Positions 33,417-42,522 of a stretch of DNA of 64,000 bases are shown one piece after another (within the stretch, counting starts at the first letter, position 1; each line of letters opens with the position of its first letter). A program made the position numbers and the translations under genes. Where the stretch lies: the NCBI GenBank assembly GCA_913778085.1, contig CAJYXJ010000020.1:1-64000 (forward strand), given 5' to 3'. The stretch is from an uncultured Chryseobacterium sp. (lineage in GTDB: Bacteria; Bacteroidota; Bacteroidia; Flavobacteriales; Weeksellaceae). The notes under the pieces were generated by a model. The model had not been told where the DNA came from and searched no databases. It was given only the letters and a program-made list of their open reading frames with translations.

Positions 33417-34601
33417 TTATTTCCTTACAAAACTTGCAACGTCATCGGCAGAAACGCTAGCTCCTCCTAAAATAATCAGTCTTTCCACAACGTTTCTCAG
33501 CTCCCTGATATTTCCGGTCCATGAAAGTGCTTTCAATGCATCGATAGCTTTATCATCAAATTTTTTCACGGCGGTACCGTGCTCATCAGCAATCATTCCT
33601 GAGAAATGTTCAACCAGAAGCCGGATGTCTTCTTTTCTTTCATCCAAAGGCGGAACATAGATCTCGATTACAGAAAGTCTGTGGTAAAGATCTTCCCTGA
33701 ATCTTCCGGCCTCAATTTCCTTCTGCATATTTTTATTGGTCGCCGCAAGAACCCTTACGTCCACTTTTATTTCCTTATCGCTTCCTACCGGGGAAACTTT
33801 GCTTTCCTGAAGCGCTCTCAAAACTTTTGCCTGGGCAATTAAGCTCATATCCCCGATTTCATCCAGGAAAATCGTTCCGCCGTTGGCCTGTTCGAATTTT
33901 CCCTGCTTATCCTTAATTGCTCCCGTGAAAGATCCTTTTACGTGCCCGAATAACTCGGATTCGATAAGTTCTGACGGAATAGCAGCACAGTTTACTTCCA
34001 CCATCGGACCTCTTGCGCGGTCGCTCTGGTTGTGGATGGCGTGGGCTACCAGTTCTTTACCGGCCCCGTTCGGTCCCGTAATCAAAACCCTTGCATCAGA
34101 CACGGCCACTTTCTCGATCATCTCCTGGATTTTCTTTAAACCTGCCGATTCACCGATCATCTGGTACTTTTTGTTTACCTTTCTCTTCAGCGTTTTGTTT
34201 TCGGTCTGAAGATTTTTGTTTTCTTTCTTCAGGGTTTCTTTGGCTAAAGCATTTTTTACACTGGTAATCAATCGGTTGATGTCAATCGGCTTGGAAATGA
34301 AATCATAAGCCCCTTCTCTCAGGCAGGAAACGGCAGAATCGATGTCTGCGTGTCCTGAAATCATGATAAAAGTGGATTCCGGCTTTAAGGCCAGACTCTG
34401 TTTCAGCAGTTCGGTTCCGGAAAGCTTAGGCATTTTGATGTCGGAAATGACCAGTGCGAAATCTTCTTTTTCGATTTGCTTATAACCTTCAAGTCCGTCT
34501 TCGGCAATTACAAATTCATATTCGGTAAGTTCGTCAGATAGGATACTTTGGAGTACTCCTGAGATTGCTTTTTCGTCTTCTACAATAAGGATTTTTTGCA
34601 T
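33417..34601 (-). CDS. Sigma-54-type response regulator (receiver + AAA+), lacking a C-terminal HTH
   Basis: About 394 residues from the ATG at 34601; a -7 promoter box at 34607-34614 rules out the TTG start further up. The receiver domain (1-120) has the acidic pocket in VEDE and the phospho-acceptor Asp in VISDIKMPK. A coiled linker with many Lys leads to the AAA+ domain (about 148-385) with Walker A GPNGAGKE, the sigma-54 loop as GSFTGA (usual GAFTGA), Walker B GTIFLDEIGDM and the arginine region RELRNVVERLIILGG. The protein ends about 15 residues later, without the usual Fis-type DNA-binding helix-turn-helix. No histidine kinase is adjacent. Confidence 0.87.
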   Translation of the reverse strand: MQKILIVEDEKAISGVLQSILSDELTEYEFVIAEDGLEGYKQIEKEDFALVISDIKMPKLSGTELLKQSLALKPESTFIMISGHADIDSAVSCLREGAYDFISKPIDINRLITSVKNALAKETLKKENKNLQTENKTLKRKVNKKYQMIGESAGLKKIQEMIEKVAVSDARVLITGPNGAGKELVAHAIHNQSDRARGPMVEVNCAAIPSELIESELFGHVKGSFTGAIKDKQGKFEQANGGTIFLDEIGDMSLIAQAKVLRALQESKVSPVGSDKEIKVDVRVLAATNKNMQKEIEAGRFREDLYHRLSVIEIYVPPLDERKEDIRLLVEHFSGMIADEHGTAVKKFDDKAIDALKALSWTGNIRELRNVVERLIILGGASVSADDVASFVRK

Positions 34602-34606
34602 AGTTG

Positions 34607-34614
34607 CAAATTTA
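34607..34614 (-). promoter_or_regulatory. -7 promoter box for the response regulator
   Basis: TAAATTTG on the - strand, exact match, only 5 bp before the ATG at 34601; it also implies a very short leader. Confidence 0.6.
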
Positions 34615-34657
34615 GATTTTTTTGATTGAATTATTAGCAAAAACCGTACCTAATCCG

Positions 34658-35317
34658 CTATTGGGAATAATCCCTTCTTCCGAAAATGGCCGATCCTATG
34701 CGGATCGAATTGGCACCGCATTCAATGGCGATCGGGAAATCGTCACTCATGCCCATCGATAAGGTTTCCAGCTTTTTCAGTTGATTTAATTCGTCGAATA
34801 GATTTTTCAGGGTTTGAAACTCCTTTTTTATCTGATCCTGATCTTCTGTGAAAGTTGCCATTCCCATTAATCCTGTGATGTTTATATGCTGATATTCTCC
34901 GCTAAGGTACTTTTCAAACAAATCTTTGACTTCACTGATTTCCAGTCCGAATTTACTTTCTTCCTCAGCGATTTTCACCTGAAGCAGAACATTGATCGTG
35001 CGGTTGTTTTTTTCTGCCTCTTTATCAATTTCGCGGATCAGCTTTTCAGAATCCACACTCTGGATGGTATCGATGAATCCGGCAATGTATTTTACTTTGT
35101 TTGTCTGAAGATGCCCGATGAGGTGCCATTGGATATCTTTCGGAAGAAGAGGATACTTCTCCGTGAGTTCCTGTACTTTGTTTTCACCGAAGACCTTTTG
35201 TCCCAGATCATAAACTTCCTGTATGGCTGAAACCGGGTGGGTCTTTGAAACGGCAACCAGCTGAACCCCGGAAGGAAGCTGGCTTTTAATAGCGTTGTAA
35301 TTTTCCTGAATGCTCAT
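34658..35317 (-). CDS. YggS-family pyridoxal-phosphate homeostasis protein
   Basis: A 219-residue protein, slightly shorter than E. coli YggS. The PLP-binding Lys is in QLVAVSKTHP (about residue 25), with further conserved parts FGENKVQE, WHLIGHLQTNKVK, GLMGMATF, LSMGMSDDFPIAIECGANSIRIGSAIFG. It is a monomeric alanine-racemase-fold protein that buffers free PLP and affects amino-acid pools; no racemase activity is known. The 56-bp gap to the response-regulator gene holds only that gene's promoter box. Confidence 0.95.
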   Translation of the reverse strand: MSIQENYNAIKSQLPSGVQLVAVSKTHPVSAIQEVYDLGQKVFGENKVQELTEKYPLLPKDIQWHLIGHLQTNKVKYIAGFIDTIQSVDSEKLIREIDKEAEKNNRTINVLLQVKIAEEESKFGLEISEVKDLFEKYLSGEYQHINITGLMGMATFTEDQDQIKKEFQTLKNLFDELNQLKKLETLSMGMSDDFPIAIECGANSIRIGSAIFGRRDYSQ

Positions 35318-35495
35318 ACCTGCAAATTTCGGGCTTTTAAACCAATTTTCCCATATTCTTGTTTATTTTTACAAATAATTGGGTGAATAAAATGATGAAA
35401 ATCTTACATTGGAATTGATCCCTTTTACTTCTTATCCCTTTGGCTATACTATAGGCAAAAAAACATCCAGCTTCCTTCTTCCAACCCATCAAATA

Positions 35496-36614
35496 CTACA
35501 TCTCCAATTCCACGATCCGTTCCACCAGTTTCCGGTTGAAACGTTCCGGAACCATTCTCATCAGGAAGTTACGTAAGGCCGTGGCTTTTTCCCATTGGGA
35601 GAACTGTCCGATCTTCCAGCTTGTACTCACTACATCATCTACTTTCTTTCGCCTGATTTTCTGAAAATCTTCAAAAACCCGATTGAAATCATCCGAACGT
35701 TCCAGCAGTTTCCCGATGATGTAGGCATCTTCAATCGACTGGCAGGCGCCTTGTCCCAGATTAGGGGTTGTGGCATGGGCAGCATCACCGATAAGACATA
35801 AGTTGTCCGCGTACCATTTCGGGATAGGAGACAAGTCGGTAAGGGTATTCATGATGATATTTTCCGGCAGGGTGGCGTTAATCATATCAATCATCATCGG
35901 ATGAAAGCCGTGAAAATTTTCGGCAATACGGCGATAAGGATCCTGCAATCCTTTATTGATAACGGCATACCAGTATATTTTTTTGCCGGTCATCTTTACA
36001 AAGCCGAAACGTTTTCCTTTGCCCCAGGCTTCCACGGCTTCCCGGTTGTACTGTTCCGGCAGGTCAAATTCTGCAAGTCCGCGCCAGCAGATCTGTCCGG
36101 TATCCCGGATTTTCCCGGTCTCTAAGATTTGGGTTCTTATCTTTGAATGGATGCCATCCGCTCCGAAGACAACTTTGCTTTTAATTTCATTCCCATTTTC
36201 AAATCTTAAAATATATCCATCTTCCCTGGTGATTTTTACTAATGAATGATTCAGACTGATGGTATCTAAACCAACATTTTGTGCCAGGATTTTTTGCAGA
36301 TCCGCCCGATGGATGGCCACATTGCAGGAATTGTATTTCTTTTCAAGTGCCAGGACATTGGTAGTGGATATGTTTTTGAGCTTCTGATCGGTTACGGAAA
36401 CAGCATTAATTTTATTACCGGCGCTTTCAATCTGCTCTTTTAATCCCAAAGTATTAAAAATCTGCATCGCATTGATAGCCATCATAATTCCTGAACCCAC
36501 CGGTTTTATTTCCGTAGCGGATTCGTAAATTCTGAAATCCAGGTTTTGTTTTTTCAGGATATTGGCCAAAGTTAAGCCTCCGATTCCGGCTCCGACAATT
36601 GAAATAGGGTTCAT
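35496..36614 (-). CDS. FAD-dependent class A monooxygenase
   Basis: A 372-residue flavoprotein. The N-terminal dinucleotide fold is VGAGIGGLTLANILKKQ (residues 6-22). The DG motif is VVFGADGIHSKIR, and the GD motif LCLIGDAAHATTPNLGQGA contacts the FAD ribityl. It resembles salicylate hydroxylase / zeaxanthin epoxidase-like enzymes, which hydroxylate or epoxidise an organic substrate with NAD(P)H and O2. It is the last gene of a - strand operon: its ATG overlaps the stop of the lipoprotein gene by one base. Its job presumably connects with the two 2OG-oxygenase-like proteins encoded upstream. Confidence 0.85.
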   Translation of the reverse strand: MNPISIVGAGIGGLTLANILKKQNLDFRIYESATEIKPVGSGIMMAINAMQIFNTLGLKEQIESAGNKINAVSVTDQKLKNISTTNVLALEKKYNSCNVAIHRADLQKILAQNVGLDTISLNHSLVKITREDGYILRFENGNEIKSKVVFGADGIHSKIRTQILETGKIRDTGQICWRGLAEFDLPEQYNREAVEAWGKGKRFGFVKMTGKKIYWYAVINKGLQDPYRRIAENFHGFHPMMIDMINATLPENIIMNTLTDLSPIPKWYADNLCLIGDAAHATTPNLGQGACQSIEDAYIIGKLLERSDDFNRVFEDFQKIRRKKVDDVVSTSWKIGQFSQWEKATALRNFLMRMVPERFNRKLVERIVELEM

Positions 36615-37210
36615 TATTTTAAATTTTTCATCGCGTTCAGCAATTGGTTCTGTTTTCCGATATATTGCTCCAGGTTATCAGTTTTTAGAGGGTGGGCATT
36701 TTGGTATTTTTCGATTTCGGGAAGGGTTTTTCGGATTTTGAATACGATGTATAAATTATTTATTGTTTCCCTATTTTTAGAAATTCGAGAAATTAAAGCT
36801 TTGATATTTTTCACCTTTAAATCATACTTTTGCATACTTAATTTAATCTCATTTTCAATTTGATGCTTCATAAGCGAATCCGTTACGCTGTTAATCTGAT
36901 TCGTGGCATCACGATAATAATCATCGGATTTGATGAAAATATTTTCATACTGATTAATAACTTTTGATTCCTCTTCGTGGACTTTCAGAATCTTATCATC
37001 GAGGGCAGATAATTTTTTATCATTTTTAATTAATTCAGAATAAATTTTATCGATCATATTATCACCGTACCGGCTGCTCTCAAATGAACCTTTCAGCGGT
37101 GAATCCGTTTTATCAACCGCATTTTCCACCAGAGGTTTATTTTCAGATCTGTTTTCTCCACAGGAAAAAATCAGTAAAGATAGAGTGGCAGTGAGGAATG
37201 TTTTTTTCAT
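36614..37210 (-). CDS. Lipoprotein with coiled-coil, function unknown
   Basis: A 198-residue protein with a lipoprotein signal peptide: Lys-Lys start, hydrophobic core and lipobox LIFSC (Cys about 17). The mature part is rich in Lys, Glu and Asn and looks like long helices (about 60-185), probably coiled-coil. No enzyme motif is seen. It should be anchored in the inner or outer membrane facing the periplasm. It lies between a putative oxygenase gene (9 bp) and the monooxygenase gene (1-bp overlap), so it is part of the same transcript. Confidence 0.7.
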   Translation of the reverse strand: MKKTFLTATLSLLIFSCGENRSENKPLVENAVDKTDSPLKGSFESSRYGDNMIDKIYSELIKNDKKLSALDDKILKVHEEESKVINQYENIFIKSDDYYRDATNQINSVTDSLMKHQIENEIKLSMQKYDLKVKNIKALISRISKNRETINNLYIVFKIRKTLPEIEKYQNAHPLKTDNLEQYIGKQNQLLNAMKNLK

Positions 37211-37219
37211 GGGATGTAT

Positions 37220-38020
37220 TTACGGTTTAATTTTGTTTTCGGGAATCAGAAGATCGGCAGGATTTACCGTGTAAAACAGTTTAGGATAAGTAAAGTCCAA
37301 CGATCGGTTTTCCTGGCCGCGCAGCTGGAAAAATTCTTTTTCTTCTTCTTCGTCAGCTAAGGTTAATAATTTCCCGGTTGAAAAATAAGGTTGCGTATCT
37401 TTAAAGGTTATGAAAGTCTTAGAAGTTCTGAAGGTGATTCCAAGCCATCGGTTTTCGGTATAATCTTTAGAGTTCTGCTTTGAATCCAGGATAATTTTAT
37501 GCTGGAACTTTTTGTTGGTCTCTGCTGAAAATATAACAGCAGAATGATGATCCAGTATAATTTCAGATTCCTCTCCGGTCATTTTGTTTTTGATGACCAG
37601 TTTTCTTATCTGATTTTCCTGTAGAACGTCGGGATTTTCATAACACGAAAACAGAGCAATAAAAGAATGGTCTTCCAGATCGAGCGCCTGGTCGGAGTGA
37701 AATCCCATTTTTGAATAGGAAGGATTATAGACTTCGATCAAGGCATTGTTAAAATCCTGTTCCGGCAGTCCAGTATTTCCGGCTGAAATAACTTTGTTAA
37801 TTTCTTCAATAACCGAATAATGAACATTTGAAAACAAATTAGCAGGAATACCGTATCGTGTTGTCGTCCTTACAACAGCTATAACTCCGTGATCTTCTTT
37901 TACAAGATGATTTCCAAGTCTGCCTTTTCCTATTTCTTCAAAGTCAGCGGAGTTCATCAGACTTTCAAATAAATTTTGCTCTGTCGGCACTGCTATTTTA
38001 TAAAACCCATGAAAATTCAT
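37220..38020 (-). CDS. Putative AlkB-like 2OG-Fe(II) oxygenase A
   Basis: A 266-residue soluble protein with no close family I can name. The middle contains a complete AlkB-type metal and cosubstrate pattern: His108 and Asp110 in GFHSDQ, preceded by LIEVYNPSYSKM as in the AlkB 'YxxGxxxxxxHxD' region; His174 in FQHKI; and Arg198 in RWLGITFRTSKT, the expected 2-oxoglutarate ligand. The C-terminal part aligns with the neighbouring protein (G-x-x-x-R-x-S ... K-D-x-Q-x-Y), so the two are paralogues. Predicted to oxidise a base, amino-acid or small-molecule substrate. Its ATG overlaps the stop of the upstream gene by one base. Confidence 0.6.
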   Translation of the reverse strand: MNFHGFYKIAVPTEQNLFESLMNSADFEEIGKGRLGNHLVKEDHGVIAVVRTTTRYGIPANLFSNVHYSVIEEINKVISAGNTGLPEQDFNNALIEVYNPSYSKMGFHSDQALDLEDHSFIALFSCYENPDVLQENQIRKLVIKNKMTGEESEIILDHHSAVIFSAETNKKFQHKIILDSKQNSKDYTENRWLGITFRTSKTFITFKDTQPYFSTGKLLTLADEEEEKEFFQLRGQENRSLDFTYPKLFYTVNPADLLIPENKIKP

Positions 38021-39243
38021 TACAATAAAGGTTTTTCATAATCGCCCAGATTCATGCTGAAATGCGTTTTTTTGTATTCCACCATATTTTCCGTCATGTT
38101 TTCTTCATAATAGGAATTCCGAAGTTCAGCCTGCATTTCCGGAGTCATCTCTTCCAGTTTCACGTAGTGATCGTTTTCTTTGATGTATGTCTGATTATCT
38201 TTGTAAACGGCCTCCAGATTCGAACAGCGAACAACATATCCCATTCTTATCGGAATCTGGTCTACTCCTAAGATAGAGGGACGGATCTCATGGGTATAAA
38301 GCCTATTCGTAGAAAGTGGAATGATAAATGCAGAATCAGGGTATAAAGTAACCGTAAATTCTTTTTGCAGAGATTGGTCTTCAACGGTTTTCTTGAGCTT
38401 AAAATGAAGTCTCGTGAGTGCGCTGGTCTGTTTATAGCATACATCAAACCTGTCTGTTTCCGACGGTTTTAAATTATCAGAATTAGAATCGTCATAAAAA
38501 GTACAGAACGCGATCAGTCCTTCTTTCGGCATGTCCTTCGTCTTGTCCGAATGGGCCTTAATCTTAGCTTTTACTTCCTTTTCAGTATCCGTAGTTTTCT
38601 TTTTATTTTCGTAGATCTGCACCAAAGCGTGGTTCAGATCGGTTTTGTATTCAAAAGTTTCCTCGGCACATTGATTCAGTAAAGCGATAATTTTACGGTC
38701 TGTTTCTCTGAAATTATCGGTTGGGCCTGTGAGATTGCTGGAGCACCGAAGAAGATTGAAGCGTAGTGCCTCTTCTCCTTCTTCAGCGGATTCTTTTGTC
38801 ACTTTACTCAGATAGATGCCTTTTCTCAATGCTTTTGCTTCTTTGTTGGATTCGGTAAGTTCCTGAAAATGATGTTCGGATTTTACCTTTTCGAAAACAT
38901 TGACTTCATTAAAAAGCTTTCGGAAATAAACGCCTGCATTGCTGATTATAACCGGAACCTCTCCGATACCCACCAGTTCTGATTTCCCTGCATGAATGTT
39001 TTCGTAATTTACCGAAAATTCTTTGATGATATGAAGGAAATGGCTATTTCCAACAAAGTTATTTAAATCCCCGCAGATGTATATTTTTTTATCCTTAAAA
39101 TTTGCATTTAAATTATCAACGACAGTTCCGCAGAAATTATCGATCAGATAATGAAGTTCTTGATTATTTTCCTGACGGTTGTTTAATACAACAAGAATAT
39201 TTTTATGTATTGCTATTTTGTTTTCCACCGAATGGTTATTCAT
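38020..39243 (-). CDS. Putative AlkB-like 2OG-Fe(II) oxygenase B with N-terminal extension
   Basis: A 407-residue protein, first gene of the four-gene - strand operon. Residues ~1-160 form a unique N-terminal part (IHKNILVVLNNRQEN..., YICGDLNNFVGNSHFL) of unknown fold. Residues ~200-355 repeat the pattern of the downstream gene: LNHALVQIYEN, His231 and Asp233 in KAHSDKT, LIAFCTFYDD, His318 in NRLYTHEI and Arg339 in PIRMGYVVRCS, then YKDNQTYI. This is the order of iron and 2-oxoglutarate ligands in AlkB-like enzymes. No signal peptide. No clear -7 box is seen upstream. Confidence 0.55.
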   Translation of the reverse strand: MNNHSVENKIAIHKNILVVLNNRQENNQELHYLIDNFCGTVVDNLNANFKDKKIYICGDLNNFVGNSHFLHIIKEFSVNYENIHAGKSELVGIGEVPVIISNAGVYFRKLFNEVNVFEKVKSEHHFQELTESNKEAKALRKGIYLSKVTKESAEEGEEALRFNLLRCSSNLTGPTDNFRETDRKIIALLNQCAEETFEYKTDLNHALVQIYENKKKTTDTEKEVKAKIKAHSDKTKDMPKEGLIAFCTFYDDSNSDNLKPSETDRFDVCYKQTSALTRLHFKLKKTVEDQSLQKEFTVTLYPDSAFIIPLSTNRLYTHEIRPSILGVDQIPIRMGYVVRCSNLEAVYKDNQTYIKENDHYVKLEEMTPEMQAELRNSYYEENMTENMVEYKKTHFSMNLGDYEKPLL

Positions 39244-39467
39244 TTTTTTAATTATGAGATGAAGATAGTTTAAAATTTTAAATGTTTAAACTATATCCAT
39301 GAAGTTTGTATTTTCCTTTTTTAACGCAAAGTGATTGTCCGTTACTCGTAATGAAAGGAAGCAAAGAAAGGATCAGCAAGCTGATCTGATGAAGCGTGTG
39401 CGTAAATCCGTTTGATTTTTTCCAGATGATAAACTATTTACTACTGATGGCTAATCAGAAACAAAAT

Positions 39468-39505
39468 AAAAAGAGAAAGTCCAAAAGCAGACCCTCTCTT
39501 TTTTG
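39468..39505. terminator. Terminator in the gap before the lipoprotein gene 3' end
   Basis: AAAAAGAGAAAGTCC / GACCCTCTCTTTTTT forms an imperfect stem with T-runs on both strands. It would end the - strand gene at 39608-40858. The 364-bp gap also holds a CTTCCAGCATCCAGCATC-type dispersed repeat (39541-39575) and an ACGCAAAG motif, and no gene. Confidence 0.6.
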
Positions 39506-39607
39506 ATATAATTTTAATATAACGTAAACAAAAAAAAAACTTCCAGCATCCAGCATCATTCTTCCAGCCATAATCTCAAGTTCACATTAATTCACCTGCA
39601 AAGTTTT

Positions 39608-40858
39608 CTATTCATATTTTGAAAAATCTACCGCAAATATGCATCGGTTCACCTGGCTTCCGTTTTGTGCACCTGCATTGGGCTCGAATTCCGTCAGGCT
39701 CCATAGGTAATTATATTGGGATTCATAGTAGAGGGATTCTGCTCCGTAAGGCCACCGGAAGCGCACCGTATCATCGGCGCCGTCTGTATACCGGGCCAGT
39801 CTCGCATTGGATCCGTACGAATTACTTGGAGATCCGGTGCAGGAAAGCCAGGTTCGGTTTCCTTTTCTGAATACGCCTTGTATTCCATGGGCATGATTAT
39901 CGGTGAAAAGGCTGTTTTTCGGTATAACCGATACAATTCCGGTATTCTGGAGGGTTCCATTGGCGTCAACAGGAAATCCGAAGACTTTGGGAACAATGGA
40001 AGCATCGGCGCTGCCGGAATAATATTGTCCGGTCCAGAACTGGGTTCCTTCATCATTGATCTGGATCGTCGAGAAAGGATTGGCATTGTTGATTTTCTGA
40101 TATCCCGTCTGAGGCAGAATATACCTGTAATTGAAAGCAAACAAATTCCCGTTGGAATCCTTACCGCATTTGTCATTGGTTGTGTCTCCGGTGCTTACTT
40201 CAATAATCTTATTAAGATCAAATACACGGACTCCCAAATTCGTGCTGCTGATATAGAGCTTACCTTTAAAATAAGCCATTCCACCAGCATGTACGTTCAG
40301 GGGAGCGTACGAAGCATACTGTGAGTAGTCCGTTACGCTTGCCGGAATGTCGGGCTGAACCAGAAGAATATGACGATAGGTAAGATAAGTGCTCGAACTC
40401 GGACTGATATCAATCAAAGTAATGCGCGATCCTTTGAATGCAGCTTCATCTTTGGCGTACCAGCTTACCAGAAGATAACGGACGCCGTCTTTGCTGAATC
40501 CTGCGATTCCCTGCGGTCTCCAGAGTGCAGTTGTTTCATCGTCGGTATTCCAGCGGATGCCCCGAACCCGGTTTTCTTCAGGAATATTAAAGCCGTAGAC
40601 TTCAGTATAAGCGCTTCCGCCAATGGCCTGGCGGTTTTTATTGAGCTGTGAAGGATTTAAAAAACTAAATCCGGAATTAATGTAGGTGCTCGTATCCACA
40701 TAAGCATTTACACTTACACTTGCATCCGCAGATGTTCTGCTGGTATTGGCTTTTAAAGATTGCTCTTCTTCTACTGAAGTGATGGCATTATTCTGGCACC
40801 CAACGCTGGTCAGCACATACAACAAAAGCATCCATCCAAGAAATTTTTTCTGAATCAT
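39608..40858 (-). CDS. Secreted lipoprotein with beta-propeller-like body, function unknown
   Basis: A 416-residue protein with a lipoprotein signal peptide (MLLLYVLTSVGC; Cys about 21) and a low-complexity Ser/Thr stretch after it. The rest contains repeated blade-like segments such as GIAGFSKDGVRYLLVSW, GGMAYFKGKLYISSTNLGVR and WTGQYYSG, typical of beta-propeller or YncE-like folds. It should sit on the outer membrane. Homologues with similar layout occur in Actinobacteria and Bacteroidota as uncharacterised secreted proteins. It is monocistronic, flanked by a terminator. Confidence 0.65.
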   Translation of the reverse strand: MIQKKFLGWMLLLYVLTSVGCQNNAITSVEEEQSLKANTSRTSADASVSVNAYVDTSTYINSGFSFLNPSQLNKNRQAIGGSAYTEVYGFNIPEENRVRGIRWNTDDETTALWRPQGIAGFSKDGVRYLLVSWYAKDEAAFKGSRITLIDISPSSSTYLTYRHILLVQPDIPASVTDYSQYASYAPLNVHAGGMAYFKGKLYISSTNLGVRVFDLNKIIEVSTGDTTNDKCGKDSNGNLFAFNYRYILPQTGYQKINNANPFSTIQINDEGTQFWTGQYYSGSADASIVPKVFGFPVDANGTLQNTGIVSVIPKNSLFTDNHAHGIQGVFRKGNRTWLSCTGSPSNSYGSNARLARYTDGADDTVRFRWPYGAESLYYESQYNYLWSLTEFEPNAGAQNGSQVNRCIFAVDFSKYE

Positions 40859-40984
40859 ATTAATAATTTACACTGTTTTGAATTGGATGCGAAGCTATCG
40901 GATTCTTACGTTAACCGGATTTCGTCCTTATTAATTATGTATTAAATTTATGTTTCTGAAAAAATAATTCGAAATAAACTGTTG

Positions 40985-41419
40985 TTAGATATCTTTTTCT
41001 AGATAATCTTCCAAATTAAAACCTGTATTTTTGAAATTAAGATTTACTTTAATGCTGCCATTGGAATTTTTTATTTCAAGTCTTTCTTTTACTTTTTGCT
41101 TTAAGTCATAAGAATATTTAAAGAAAACACCAGGGAAGTTTTCCTGGCTTTTGGTAAGTTGGATAATCGATTTGTTGAAAGGAATAATAAAAATTTCATC
41201 ATCCAAAAAAATAATATTCCCTTTTCGATAACTTATTTTGGCTCCTAATTTCGAATATCCTTCAATCTCAGCTTCTACATTTTTGATGACATCGTATTTT
41301 CTATCTCTGATAAAATTGAAAAAACGGCGGTATTTATTTTTATTTAAGAAGTAAATGAAAATATTTCCAAAAATAAAAATCAGGATAAATCCTCCTATAA
41401 AAAAGTAGAGTCCTTCCAT
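40985..41419 (-). CDS. Hypothetical membrane-anchored protein
   Basis: A 144-residue protein with one N-terminal membrane helix (GLYFFIGGFILIFIFGNIFIY, residues 3-23), a basic stretch (NKNKYRRF) that should lie in the cytoplasm, and a C-terminal ~100-residue domain predicted as mixed alpha/beta (KISYRKGNIIFLDDEIFIIPF). No known family was recognised. Promoter box TATCTTTG at 41445-41452 on the - strand supports this start. AT-rich with many Lys and Asn, suggesting weaker codon adaptation than its neighbours. Confidence 0.6.
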   Translation of the reverse strand: MEGLYFFIGGFILIFIFGNIFIYFLNKNKYRRFFNFIRDRKYDVIKNVEAEIEGYSKLGAKISYRKGNIIFLDDEIFIIPFNKSIIQLTKSQENFPGVFFKYSYDLKQKVKERLEIKNSNGSIKVNLNFKNTGFNLEDYLEKDI

Positions 41420-41444
41420 AAATAAAAATGTAACGGAAAAGAAT

Positions 41445-41452
41445 CAAAGATA
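41445..41452 (-). promoter_or_regulatory. -7 promoter box for the hypothetical membrane protein
   Basis: TATCTTTG on the - strand, an exact TAnnTTTG match, 25 bp before the ATG. Confidence 0.55.
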
Positions 41453-41524
41453 TTTAACCTGTATAAAATACGCACCAAATTTTAAATATTTTTTATTTTT
41501 ATCTGATGTATTCTAACCTATAAG

Positions 41525-41547
41525 GGCTTCGGCTACGCTCAGCCACC
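41525..41547. repeat. Short dispersed repeat related to the 49.4-49.6 kb repeats
   Basis: GGCTTCGGCTACGCTCAGCCACC resembles GGCTTCGAGCGCCTTCAGCCACC in the repeats at 49378-49438 and 49560-49620. It can fold on itself (GGCT...AGCC). Confidence 0.45.
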
Positions 41548-41601
41548 AGAAAATTAAATGTATTATGACTAATGTGTTAAAGCAGACTACAAACATCCAT
41601 G

Positions 41602-41634
41602 AAAAAAAAACGGAGCCTGAAAATCAAGCTCCGC
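41602..41634 (-). terminator. Terminator after the primary sigma factor gene
   Basis: On the - strand CGGAGCTTG...CAGGCTCCG forms a stem followed by TTTTTTTTT. Confidence 0.8.
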
Positions 41635-41655
41635 GTATGTATATTTCGTTAAAAA

Positions 41656-42522
41656 TTACTTCCCTAAATAAGATTTAAGAATCTTACTTCTGGTATTGTG
41701 CTTCAATCTCTTGATCGCTTTTTCTTTGATCTGACGAACACGTTCTCTCGTAAGGTCGAAAGTTTCACCGATTTCTTCCAAAGTCATCGGGTGTTTCCCG
41801 TTCAGTCCGAAATACAGTCTCACCAAATCCGCTTCTCTTGGTGTCAGCGTATTCAATGCTCTTTCAATCTCGATCTGAAGCGATTCCAGCATCAGGTCTT
41901 TATCCGGGCTCGGAGACTCTCCTGAACGCAATACGTCGTAAAGGTTGGAATCTTCACCTTCTACCAAAGGGGCATCCATCGACAGGTGTCTTCCGGAGTT
42001 TTTCATCGATTCCTTGATGTCCTCCTCGCTCATATCGAGAACTTCGGCCAACTCTTCCGGGGAAGGTGGTCTTTCGTTTTCCTGCTCAAGATGTGCGTAA
42101 GCTTTATTGATCTTATTGATGGAACCGATTTTGTTCAGCGGTAACCTTACAATTCTCGACTGTTCTGCCAAAGCCTGTAAGATCGACTGACGGATCCACC
42201 AAACCGCGTAAGAGATGAATTTGAAACCTCTAGTTTCATCATACCTTTTTGCCGCCTTCATAAGTCCTAAGTTACCTTCGTTAATCAAATCCGGTAAAGA
42301 AAGACCCTGATTTTGGTACTGCTTGGATACGGATACTACGAAACGGAGGTTGGCCTTAATTAATTTTTCCAGTGCTGCTCTGTCGCCCGCACGGATTCGC
42401 TGTGCCAAATCTACCTCTTCGTCCGCAGTGATCAGTTCCACTTTACCAATTTCCTGCAAATACTTGTCTAATGAAGCAGTTTCCCTGTTGGTTACCTGCT
42501 TAGTGATTTTTAATTGTCTCAT
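41656..42522 (-). CDS. rpoD: Primary RNA polymerase sigma factor (Bacteroidota SigA type)
   Basis: At 288 residues it is much shorter than E. coli sigma-70 because region 1.1 and the non-conserved insert are absent, as is normal in Bacteroidota. Visible regions: 1.2 ([20 protein letters not shown]), 2.1-2.4 ([32 protein letters not shown]), 3 ([20 protein letters not shown]) and 4.2 ([20 protein letters not shown]). It recognises the TTG/TAnnTTTG promoters seen throughout this window. A terminator lies close downstream; the gap upstream contains repeats only. Confidence 0.95.

What the first reader, a model, noticed from the sequence alone, without database searches (positions are those of the whole stretch)
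35496..39243. Coupled operon with two paralogous, divergent AlkB-like 2OG-Fe(II) oxygenases, a lipoprotein and a flavin monooxygenase
Seen: four - strand genes joined by 1-bp, 9-bp and 1-bp junctions. Proteins 37220-38020 and 38020-39243 share a pattern HxD ... H ... G-x-x-x-R-x-S ... K-D-x-Q-x-Y (His108/Asp110/His174/Arg198 and His231/Asp233/His318/Arg339). Knowledge: this is the ligand order of AlkB-type 2-oxoglutarate oxygenases. Inference: two O2-dependent iron enzymes, a FAD monooxygenase and a membrane-anchored periplasmic protein form one oxidative pathway, perhaps for nucleic-acid, lipid or metabolite modification. I do not recognise this combination as a described system; it is my main candidate for something new.
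Basis: partly seen in the sequence, partly recalled or inferred. Interest (0 to 1): 0.75.

Follow-up and report, generated by a model that had tools for sequence, protein, structure and literature searches.

The report
Paired AlkB-like oxygenase genes, travelling together
Two neighbouring genes in a Chryseobacterium-type genome encode a matched pair of divergent relatives of the DNA/RNA repair enzyme AlkB that is found side by side in two bacterial phyla; the pair looks like a real but unstudied unit, while the two genes behind it look like older neighbours.

The parts
38020..39243 (-). Gene A, 407 aa: N-terminal alpha/beta part (about residues 1-100), AlkB-like domain (about 95-344), C-terminal tail
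37220..38020 (-). Gene B, 266 aa: AlkB-like domain (about 2-202), C-terminal tail
38545..38553 (-). A His231-Ser-Asp233 (Fe ligands)
   Evidence: H and D invariant in 30 of 30 aligned; pLDDT under 50 for 219-233
38290..38292 (-). A His318 (distal Fe ligand)
   Evidence: 30 of 30 aligned
38227..38247 (-). A Arg333-x-Gly-x-Val-x-Arg339, counterpart of AlkB RxNxTxR
   Evidence: 30 of 30 aligned; register inferred from row ends and hhalign
37691..37699 (-). B His108-Ser-Asp110 (Fe ligands)
   Evidence: 30 of 30 aligned; aligned to HSD of the genome's own AlkB
37499..37501 (-). B His174 (distal Fe ligand)
   Evidence: 30 of 30 aligned
37427..37447 (-). B Trp192-x-Gly-x-Thr-x-Arg198: first arginine of RxNxTxR replaced by Trp
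   Evidence: 30 of 30 aligned (invariant list); register inferred from row ends
36614..37210 (-). Lipoprotein-like gene (by eye), 198 aa; resident neighbour, not part of the A-B unit
   Evidence: 95 of 119 genomes
35496..36614 (-). FAD monooxygenase-like gene, 372 aa (PF01494); resident neighbour, not part of the A-B unit
   Evidence: 95 of 119 genomes

Best explanation
A and B are one two-gene, horizontally moving module of the AlkB superfamily. Shown: shared predicted fold and ancestry, invariant iron triads, adjacency in the loci examined, correlated divergence. Inferred: A is the working Fe(II)/2-oxoglutarate oxygenase, because it keeps both arginines of the AlkB motif; B, whose first arginine is replaced by an invariant Trp, is its obligate partner (a subunit that helps fold, positions the substrate, or uses a remodelled pocket). 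Inferred with less support: the substrate is a modified base in nucleic acid or a nucleotide, oxidised or dealkylated as by AlkB/FTO; in several marine Flavobacteriaceae an endonuclease V encoded right behind could deal with deaminated bases. In the window's lineage the module sits between rpoD and a resident lipoprotein-monooxygenase pair and may be co-transcribed with it by position only.
Against: No activity is known; the substrate rests on kinship and linkage. Isoelectric points are near neutral (median A 6.36, B 5.86; own AlkB 7.8). EndoV occurs without A-B: 106 of 119 congeners have it, unlinked in the own genome; three genomes of the Winogradskyella genus keep it in the same place with no A-B; none at the three Actinomycetota loci; 7 of the 10 linked loci form one A clade, so independent linkages may be few. 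The monooxygenase is mildly enriched with A-B (18 of 18 against 77 of 101). The part of model A with His231/Asp233 has pLDDT under 50, so clustering of the ligands in A is not shown. Whether A and B touch was not tested. The motif register rests on row ends, some of which differ by one residue for A.
Confidence: 0.45

Rival explanations
1. A-B is a two-enzyme tailoring or catabolic unit that oxidises a small molecule or lipid, using an AlkB-like fold in a new role; both members are catalysts acting in sequence.
For: Near-neutral pI; patchy spread: 3 of 395 in a phylum sample, own genome counted, 5 of 395 in an order sample; three Actinomycetota carriers; changed 2OG motif in B; in this lineage beside a FAD monooxygenase that is mildly enriched with A-B.
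Against: Across genera the only recurring direct neighbour I found is endonuclease V (the printout was cut and part of L023-L025 not seen; Actinomycetota neighbours were only looked at by eye). Nearest folds are nucleic-acid demethylases.
Confidence: 0.25
2. The four genes form one oxidative pathway.
For: Tight junctions in this genome; lipoprotein downstream of A-B in 10 of the 12 Weeksellaceae loci L009-L019 and L022; monooxygenase in 18 of 18 A-B genomes against 77 of 101 others.
Against: Lipoprotein and monooxygenase are common without A-B (80 and 77 of 101) and stand in the same order behind rpoD in ten inspected loci without it. About 270 bases separate B and lipoprotein in L010 and L012; the lipoprotein is missing in L017 and L019; another gene lies between lipoprotein and monooxygenase in L016 and L018. 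Not found at A-B beyond Weeksellaceae.
Confidence: 0.05
3. A-B is an alkylation/oxidation-damage repair or anti-phage counter-modification cassette working together with endonuclease V as a three-gene system.
For: Direct A-B-EndoV order in 10 of 14 loci; in the Winogradskyella genus 5 of 5 A-positive genomes have EndoV next door against 10 of 63 A-negative genomes with EndoV anywhere (related genomes, not independent); neighbourhood with SUKH, DUF2314 and LRR genes.
Against: No PADLOC model matches A, B or EndoV at E up to 0.1; no phage or viral relatives found; EndoV stands alone in the same place in three genomes.
Confidence: 0.2

Closest known systems
AlkB / ALKBH2 / ALKBH3 (PF13532 2OG-Fe(II) oxygenases)
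   Same: Predicted fold, HxD...H iron triad, second arginine; hhalign match of B to the genome's own AlkB around the triad
   Different: A tandem of two divergent paralogues; extra N-terminal part and about 10 extra residues between Tyr and HxD in A; NxY is QxY (A) or ExY (B); RxNxTxR is RxGxVxR (A) or WxGxTxR (B)
FTO (N6-methyladenine demethylase)
   Different: About 10-14% identity in those rows; FTO is a single eukaryotic enzyme (recalled)
Ordinary AlkB of the same genome, L170:1310-1921 (G000 contig 65)
   Same: HSD and distal His align with B; weak alignment with A
   Different: 203 aa, keeps RVNLTFR and NLY, lies near a gene that looks Ada-like by eye
Alkyltransferase-endonuclease V fusion of Ferroplasma acidarmanus
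   Same: Joins a direct alkyl-repair activity to endonuclease V, as A-B-EndoV may do in marine flavobacteria
   Different: Fusion, archaeal, alkyltransferase not oxygenase (passages in PMC3489907, PMC10779285)

Membership tests
AlkB superfamily (protein B) | Curated score for PF13532 | tested here: met
   38.7 bits against cut-off 31.2; 25 of 25 members match at E up to 0.1
AlkB superfamily (protein A) | Curated score for PF13532 | tested here: not met
   16.2 bits against 31.2; 17 of 25 members match at E up to 0.1, best 1.4e-4
AlkB superfamily (A and B) | AlkB-type double-stranded beta-helix fold | tested here: met
AlkB superfamily (A and B) | HxD...H iron triad | tested here: met
   30 of 30 aligned sequences each; spatial clustering not shown for A
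AlkB superfamily (A) | RxNxTxR motif (recalled), both arginines | tested here: inconclusive
   Both arginines present, middle residues changed: R333xGxVxR339, 30 of 30
AlkB superfamily (B) | RxNxTxR motif (recalled), both arginines | tested here: not met
   W192xGxTxR198, 30 of 30; register by row ends and hhalign A-B
AlkB superfamily | 2OG-dependent oxidative dealkylation | not testable with these tools
   Needs enzyme assay
Bacterial AlkB groups of van den Born 2009 | Group-specific sequence features | not tested
   Paper not held; known to me here only as a reference in PMC3265494
   with the mild monooxygenase enrichment told above
Endonuclease V (gene behind A-B in relatives) | PF04493 over cut-off | tested here: met
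   37.0-45.4 bits against 23.4 in the 4 linked copies scanned of 10

The most novel reading that the evidence does not exclude
A-B is an obligate heteromeric AlkB: a catalytic 2OG oxygenase (A) with a paralogous partner (B) that keeps its iron site but has lost the first 2OG arginine, a bacterial parallel to catalytic/pseudo-catalytic pairs such as METTL3-METTL14 (recalled), which recognises a nucleic-acid mark that no known AlkB handles and can hand it on to endonuclease V.
Probability: 0.15. Interest if true: 0.75.

Novelty: new variant of a known kind. Interest (0 to 1): 0.5.

Why it matters
AlkB enzymes are normally described as single proteins (recalled). A pair that stays together in Bacteroidota and Actinomycetota, with one member altered at the cosubstrate motif in every copy aligned, points to a division of labour that I did not find in print (listings), and the endonuclease V link makes a concrete nucleic-acid hypothesis testable.

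Tried and rejected
Four-gene pathway: not borne out. Phage or viral origin: no match in 50,697 phage records; none of 36 and 61 pattern matches in viral contigs confirmed. Defence label: PADLOC gives nothing for A or B; PHROGs gives B an 'alkylated DNA repair' family at 7.5e-5 and A nothing. EndoV co-occurrence across the genus is uninformative: 106 of 119 genomes have it, among them 18 of 18 with B. EndoV tree: linked copies do not form an exclusive group; three syntenic copies without A-B, the unlinked G446 copy and the window genome's copy fall among them, and several forks are open. Mobile-element footprints: no repeat longer than 24 nt at 79% in 36900-40000. Promoter: no TANNTTTG in the 364 bases upstream of A; the pattern is at chance level in the window. 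Rfam: nothing at gathering score in 34000-42000. PDB by sequence alone: only sub-threshold rows for B (ALKBH3, E 0.081), none for A. The VIA-align top 50 show only AlkB, ALKBH2, ALKBH3 and FTO; absence of other families there is no evidence.

Rows set aside: 98 of 119 genomes match at E up to 0.001, but in 80 of them only by weak 25-32% hits that I take for ordinary AlkB; I read only the own genome's. In one search a 28% hit over 107 residues in G008 was taken as chance. L030 was left out of the alignments (24 of 25 fetched loci plus the window). Named loci and genome handles overlap in part, so their counts are not independent.

Literature: I saw search listings with abstract starts and passages of PMC3265494, PMC8508711, PMC3489907 and PMC10779285 (those of PMC8508711 were reference-list lines only). 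No paper was read whole.
Full report
WHAT IS THERE. The four ORFs and their junctions are as described. Pfam calls gene B (37220-38020) a 2OG-Fe(II) oxygenase above its cut-off (38.7 against 31.2 bits) and gene A (38020-39243) the same family below it (16.2 bits); the last gene is a FAD-binding monooxygenase (PF01494), and the 198-aa gene has no match above cut-off. NCBIfam assigns nothing above cut-off to A, B, the lipoprotein or the monooxygenase.

THE TWO ARE NOT EQUIVALENT. In the structural rows B residue 202 ends opposite AlkB residue 214 and ALKBH2 residue 258 in several entries; A residue 343 ends opposite AlkB 214 and, in most ALKBH2 rows, 258 (3bty and a few others end one residue off). 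Only row ends are printed, so the register is an inference; the hhalign pairing of A and B and the TFR shared by B and the genome's own AlkB agree with it. It puts A Arg333/Arg339 and B Trp192/Arg198 on the two arginines of the AlkB RxNxTxR motif. The motif and its 2OG-binding role are recalled; the first arginine is, from recall, the one that holds the distal carboxylate of 2OG. Arg333 is invariant in 30 of 30 A and Trp192 in 30 of 30 B. The NxY ahead of HxD in AlkB (NLY in the own AlkB) is QxY in A and ExY in B, also invariant. I infer that A is the likelier 2OG enzyme and B a partner with a changed pocket.

THE UNIT IS A-B. In 25 of 25 loci found with A in the genome collection B follows directly. 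In the genus sample 18 of 119 genomes have B (17 whole, one broken), and A lies beside it in 18 of 18, broken in two. Broader samples gave 3 of 395 genomes of the phylum, the own one counted, and 5 of 395 of the order, three of them congeners, so the pair is rare and patchy. tblastn in 72,556 plasmid-collection records found three Actinomycetota records (two Embleya, one Nonomuraea), A at 43-46% and B at 46-48% identity, adjacent in all three; the Nonomuraea A reading leaves the family frame near its end (by eye). A and B distances correlate at 0.94, with 0 of 2000 permutations as high, which shared species history also predicts. In the A tree Xanthocytophaga (Rhodocytophagaceae; another order, recalled) is sister to the Chryseobacterium-type clade (100/97); in the B tree it groups with the Flavobacteriaceae rows (100/99) and the Actinomycetota rows fall among Chryseobacterium with weak support, so the two trees agree only in part. 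Presence in two phyla and the patchy spread suggest horizontal movement.

LIPOPROTEIN AND MONOOXYGENASE ARE RESIDENTS. Each is in 95 of 119 genus genomes at the thresholds used; for the monooxygenase eight of these rest on 43-51% paralogues only. By my count the lipoprotein is in 15 of 18 genomes with A-B and 80 of 101 without; the monooxygenase in 18 of 18 (one paralogue only) and 77 of 101, a mild enrichment that I report against my reading. Ten loci from genomes without A-B, picked by their lipoprotein or monooxygenase hit, hold rpoD (10), lipoprotein (9) and monooxygenase (8) in the window's order and no A-B. A-B therefore lies between rpoD and an older pair. Coupling to the lipoprotein is not constant: about 270 bases separate them in L010 and L012, the lipoprotein is missing in L017 and L019, and another gene stands between lipoprotein and monooxygenase in L016 and L018.

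ENDONUCLEASE V. Outside Weeksellaceae, 10 of 14 Bacteroidota A-B loci have an endonuclease V gene right behind B (PF04493 over cut-off in the four scanned); in G339 it overlaps B by four bases. None was found at the three Actinomycetota loci. Against over-reading: 7 of the 10 are one A clade; nine of nine A-B genomes searched have one EndoV match each, linked in five and elsewhere in four (linkage judged from positions and contig lengths); in the Winogradskyella genus A is in 5 of 68 and EndoV in 15 of 68 genomes, all five A-positive with EndoV adjacent, but three more keep the same syntenic EndoV without A-B. A 151-aa gene joined to the start of A in that clade is also missing from those three, so it appears to come and go with A-B. 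The link is suggestive, not decisive.

RELATION TO KNOWN SYSTEMS. The genome has a conventional AlkB elsewhere (L170:1310-1921, RVNLTFR), so A-B is not its ordinary copy. Joining alkyl repair to endonuclease V has a precedent in the Ferroplasma fusion protein (passages in PMC3489907 and PMC10779285). The listings show no paper on a paired AlkB of this kind; the main paper on bacterial AlkB groups is not held, so whether it covers these is untested.

VERDICT. Real, conserved, a new variant of the AlkB kind; four-gene pathway not borne out; substrate open.

Noticed in passing
L026:7540-7995 and syntenic copies in L189-L191 and L193: 151-aa gene of unknown function joined to the start of A in the Winogradskyella clade; not found in the three syntenic loci that lack A-B. 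Only weak BrxA-like hits (E 0.016 Pfam, 0.0027 PADLOC).
   Followed up: partly
L026:3732-12816; LRR gene read in L028:12792-15164: The Winogradskyella A-B-EndoV locus lies in an island with SMI1/KNR4 (SUKH), DUF2314 and leucine-rich-repeat genes, of a kind often seen as toxin-immunity arrays (interpretation recalled).
   Followed up: no
L030, L051 (G086), L049 (G105); lipoprotein in L009 and L035: Some Chryseobacterium copies of A, B or the lipoprotein are interrupted by frameshifts or stops, as expected of a dispensable accessory unit.
   Followed up: no
G000 contig 41, 42668-43183 (L171:4669-5184): The window's genome has its own endonuclease V-like gene, about 50-54% identical to those behind A-B in marine flavobacteria but unlinked to A-B.
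   Followed up: yes
window 39608-40858 and 40985-41419: A 416-aa protein without Pfam or NCBIfam match, exported by the look of its start, lies upstream of A in the window's close relatives and was not found at the more distant Chryseobacterium A-B loci L015-L019; a variable 144-aa gene precedes it behind rpoD.
   Followed up: no
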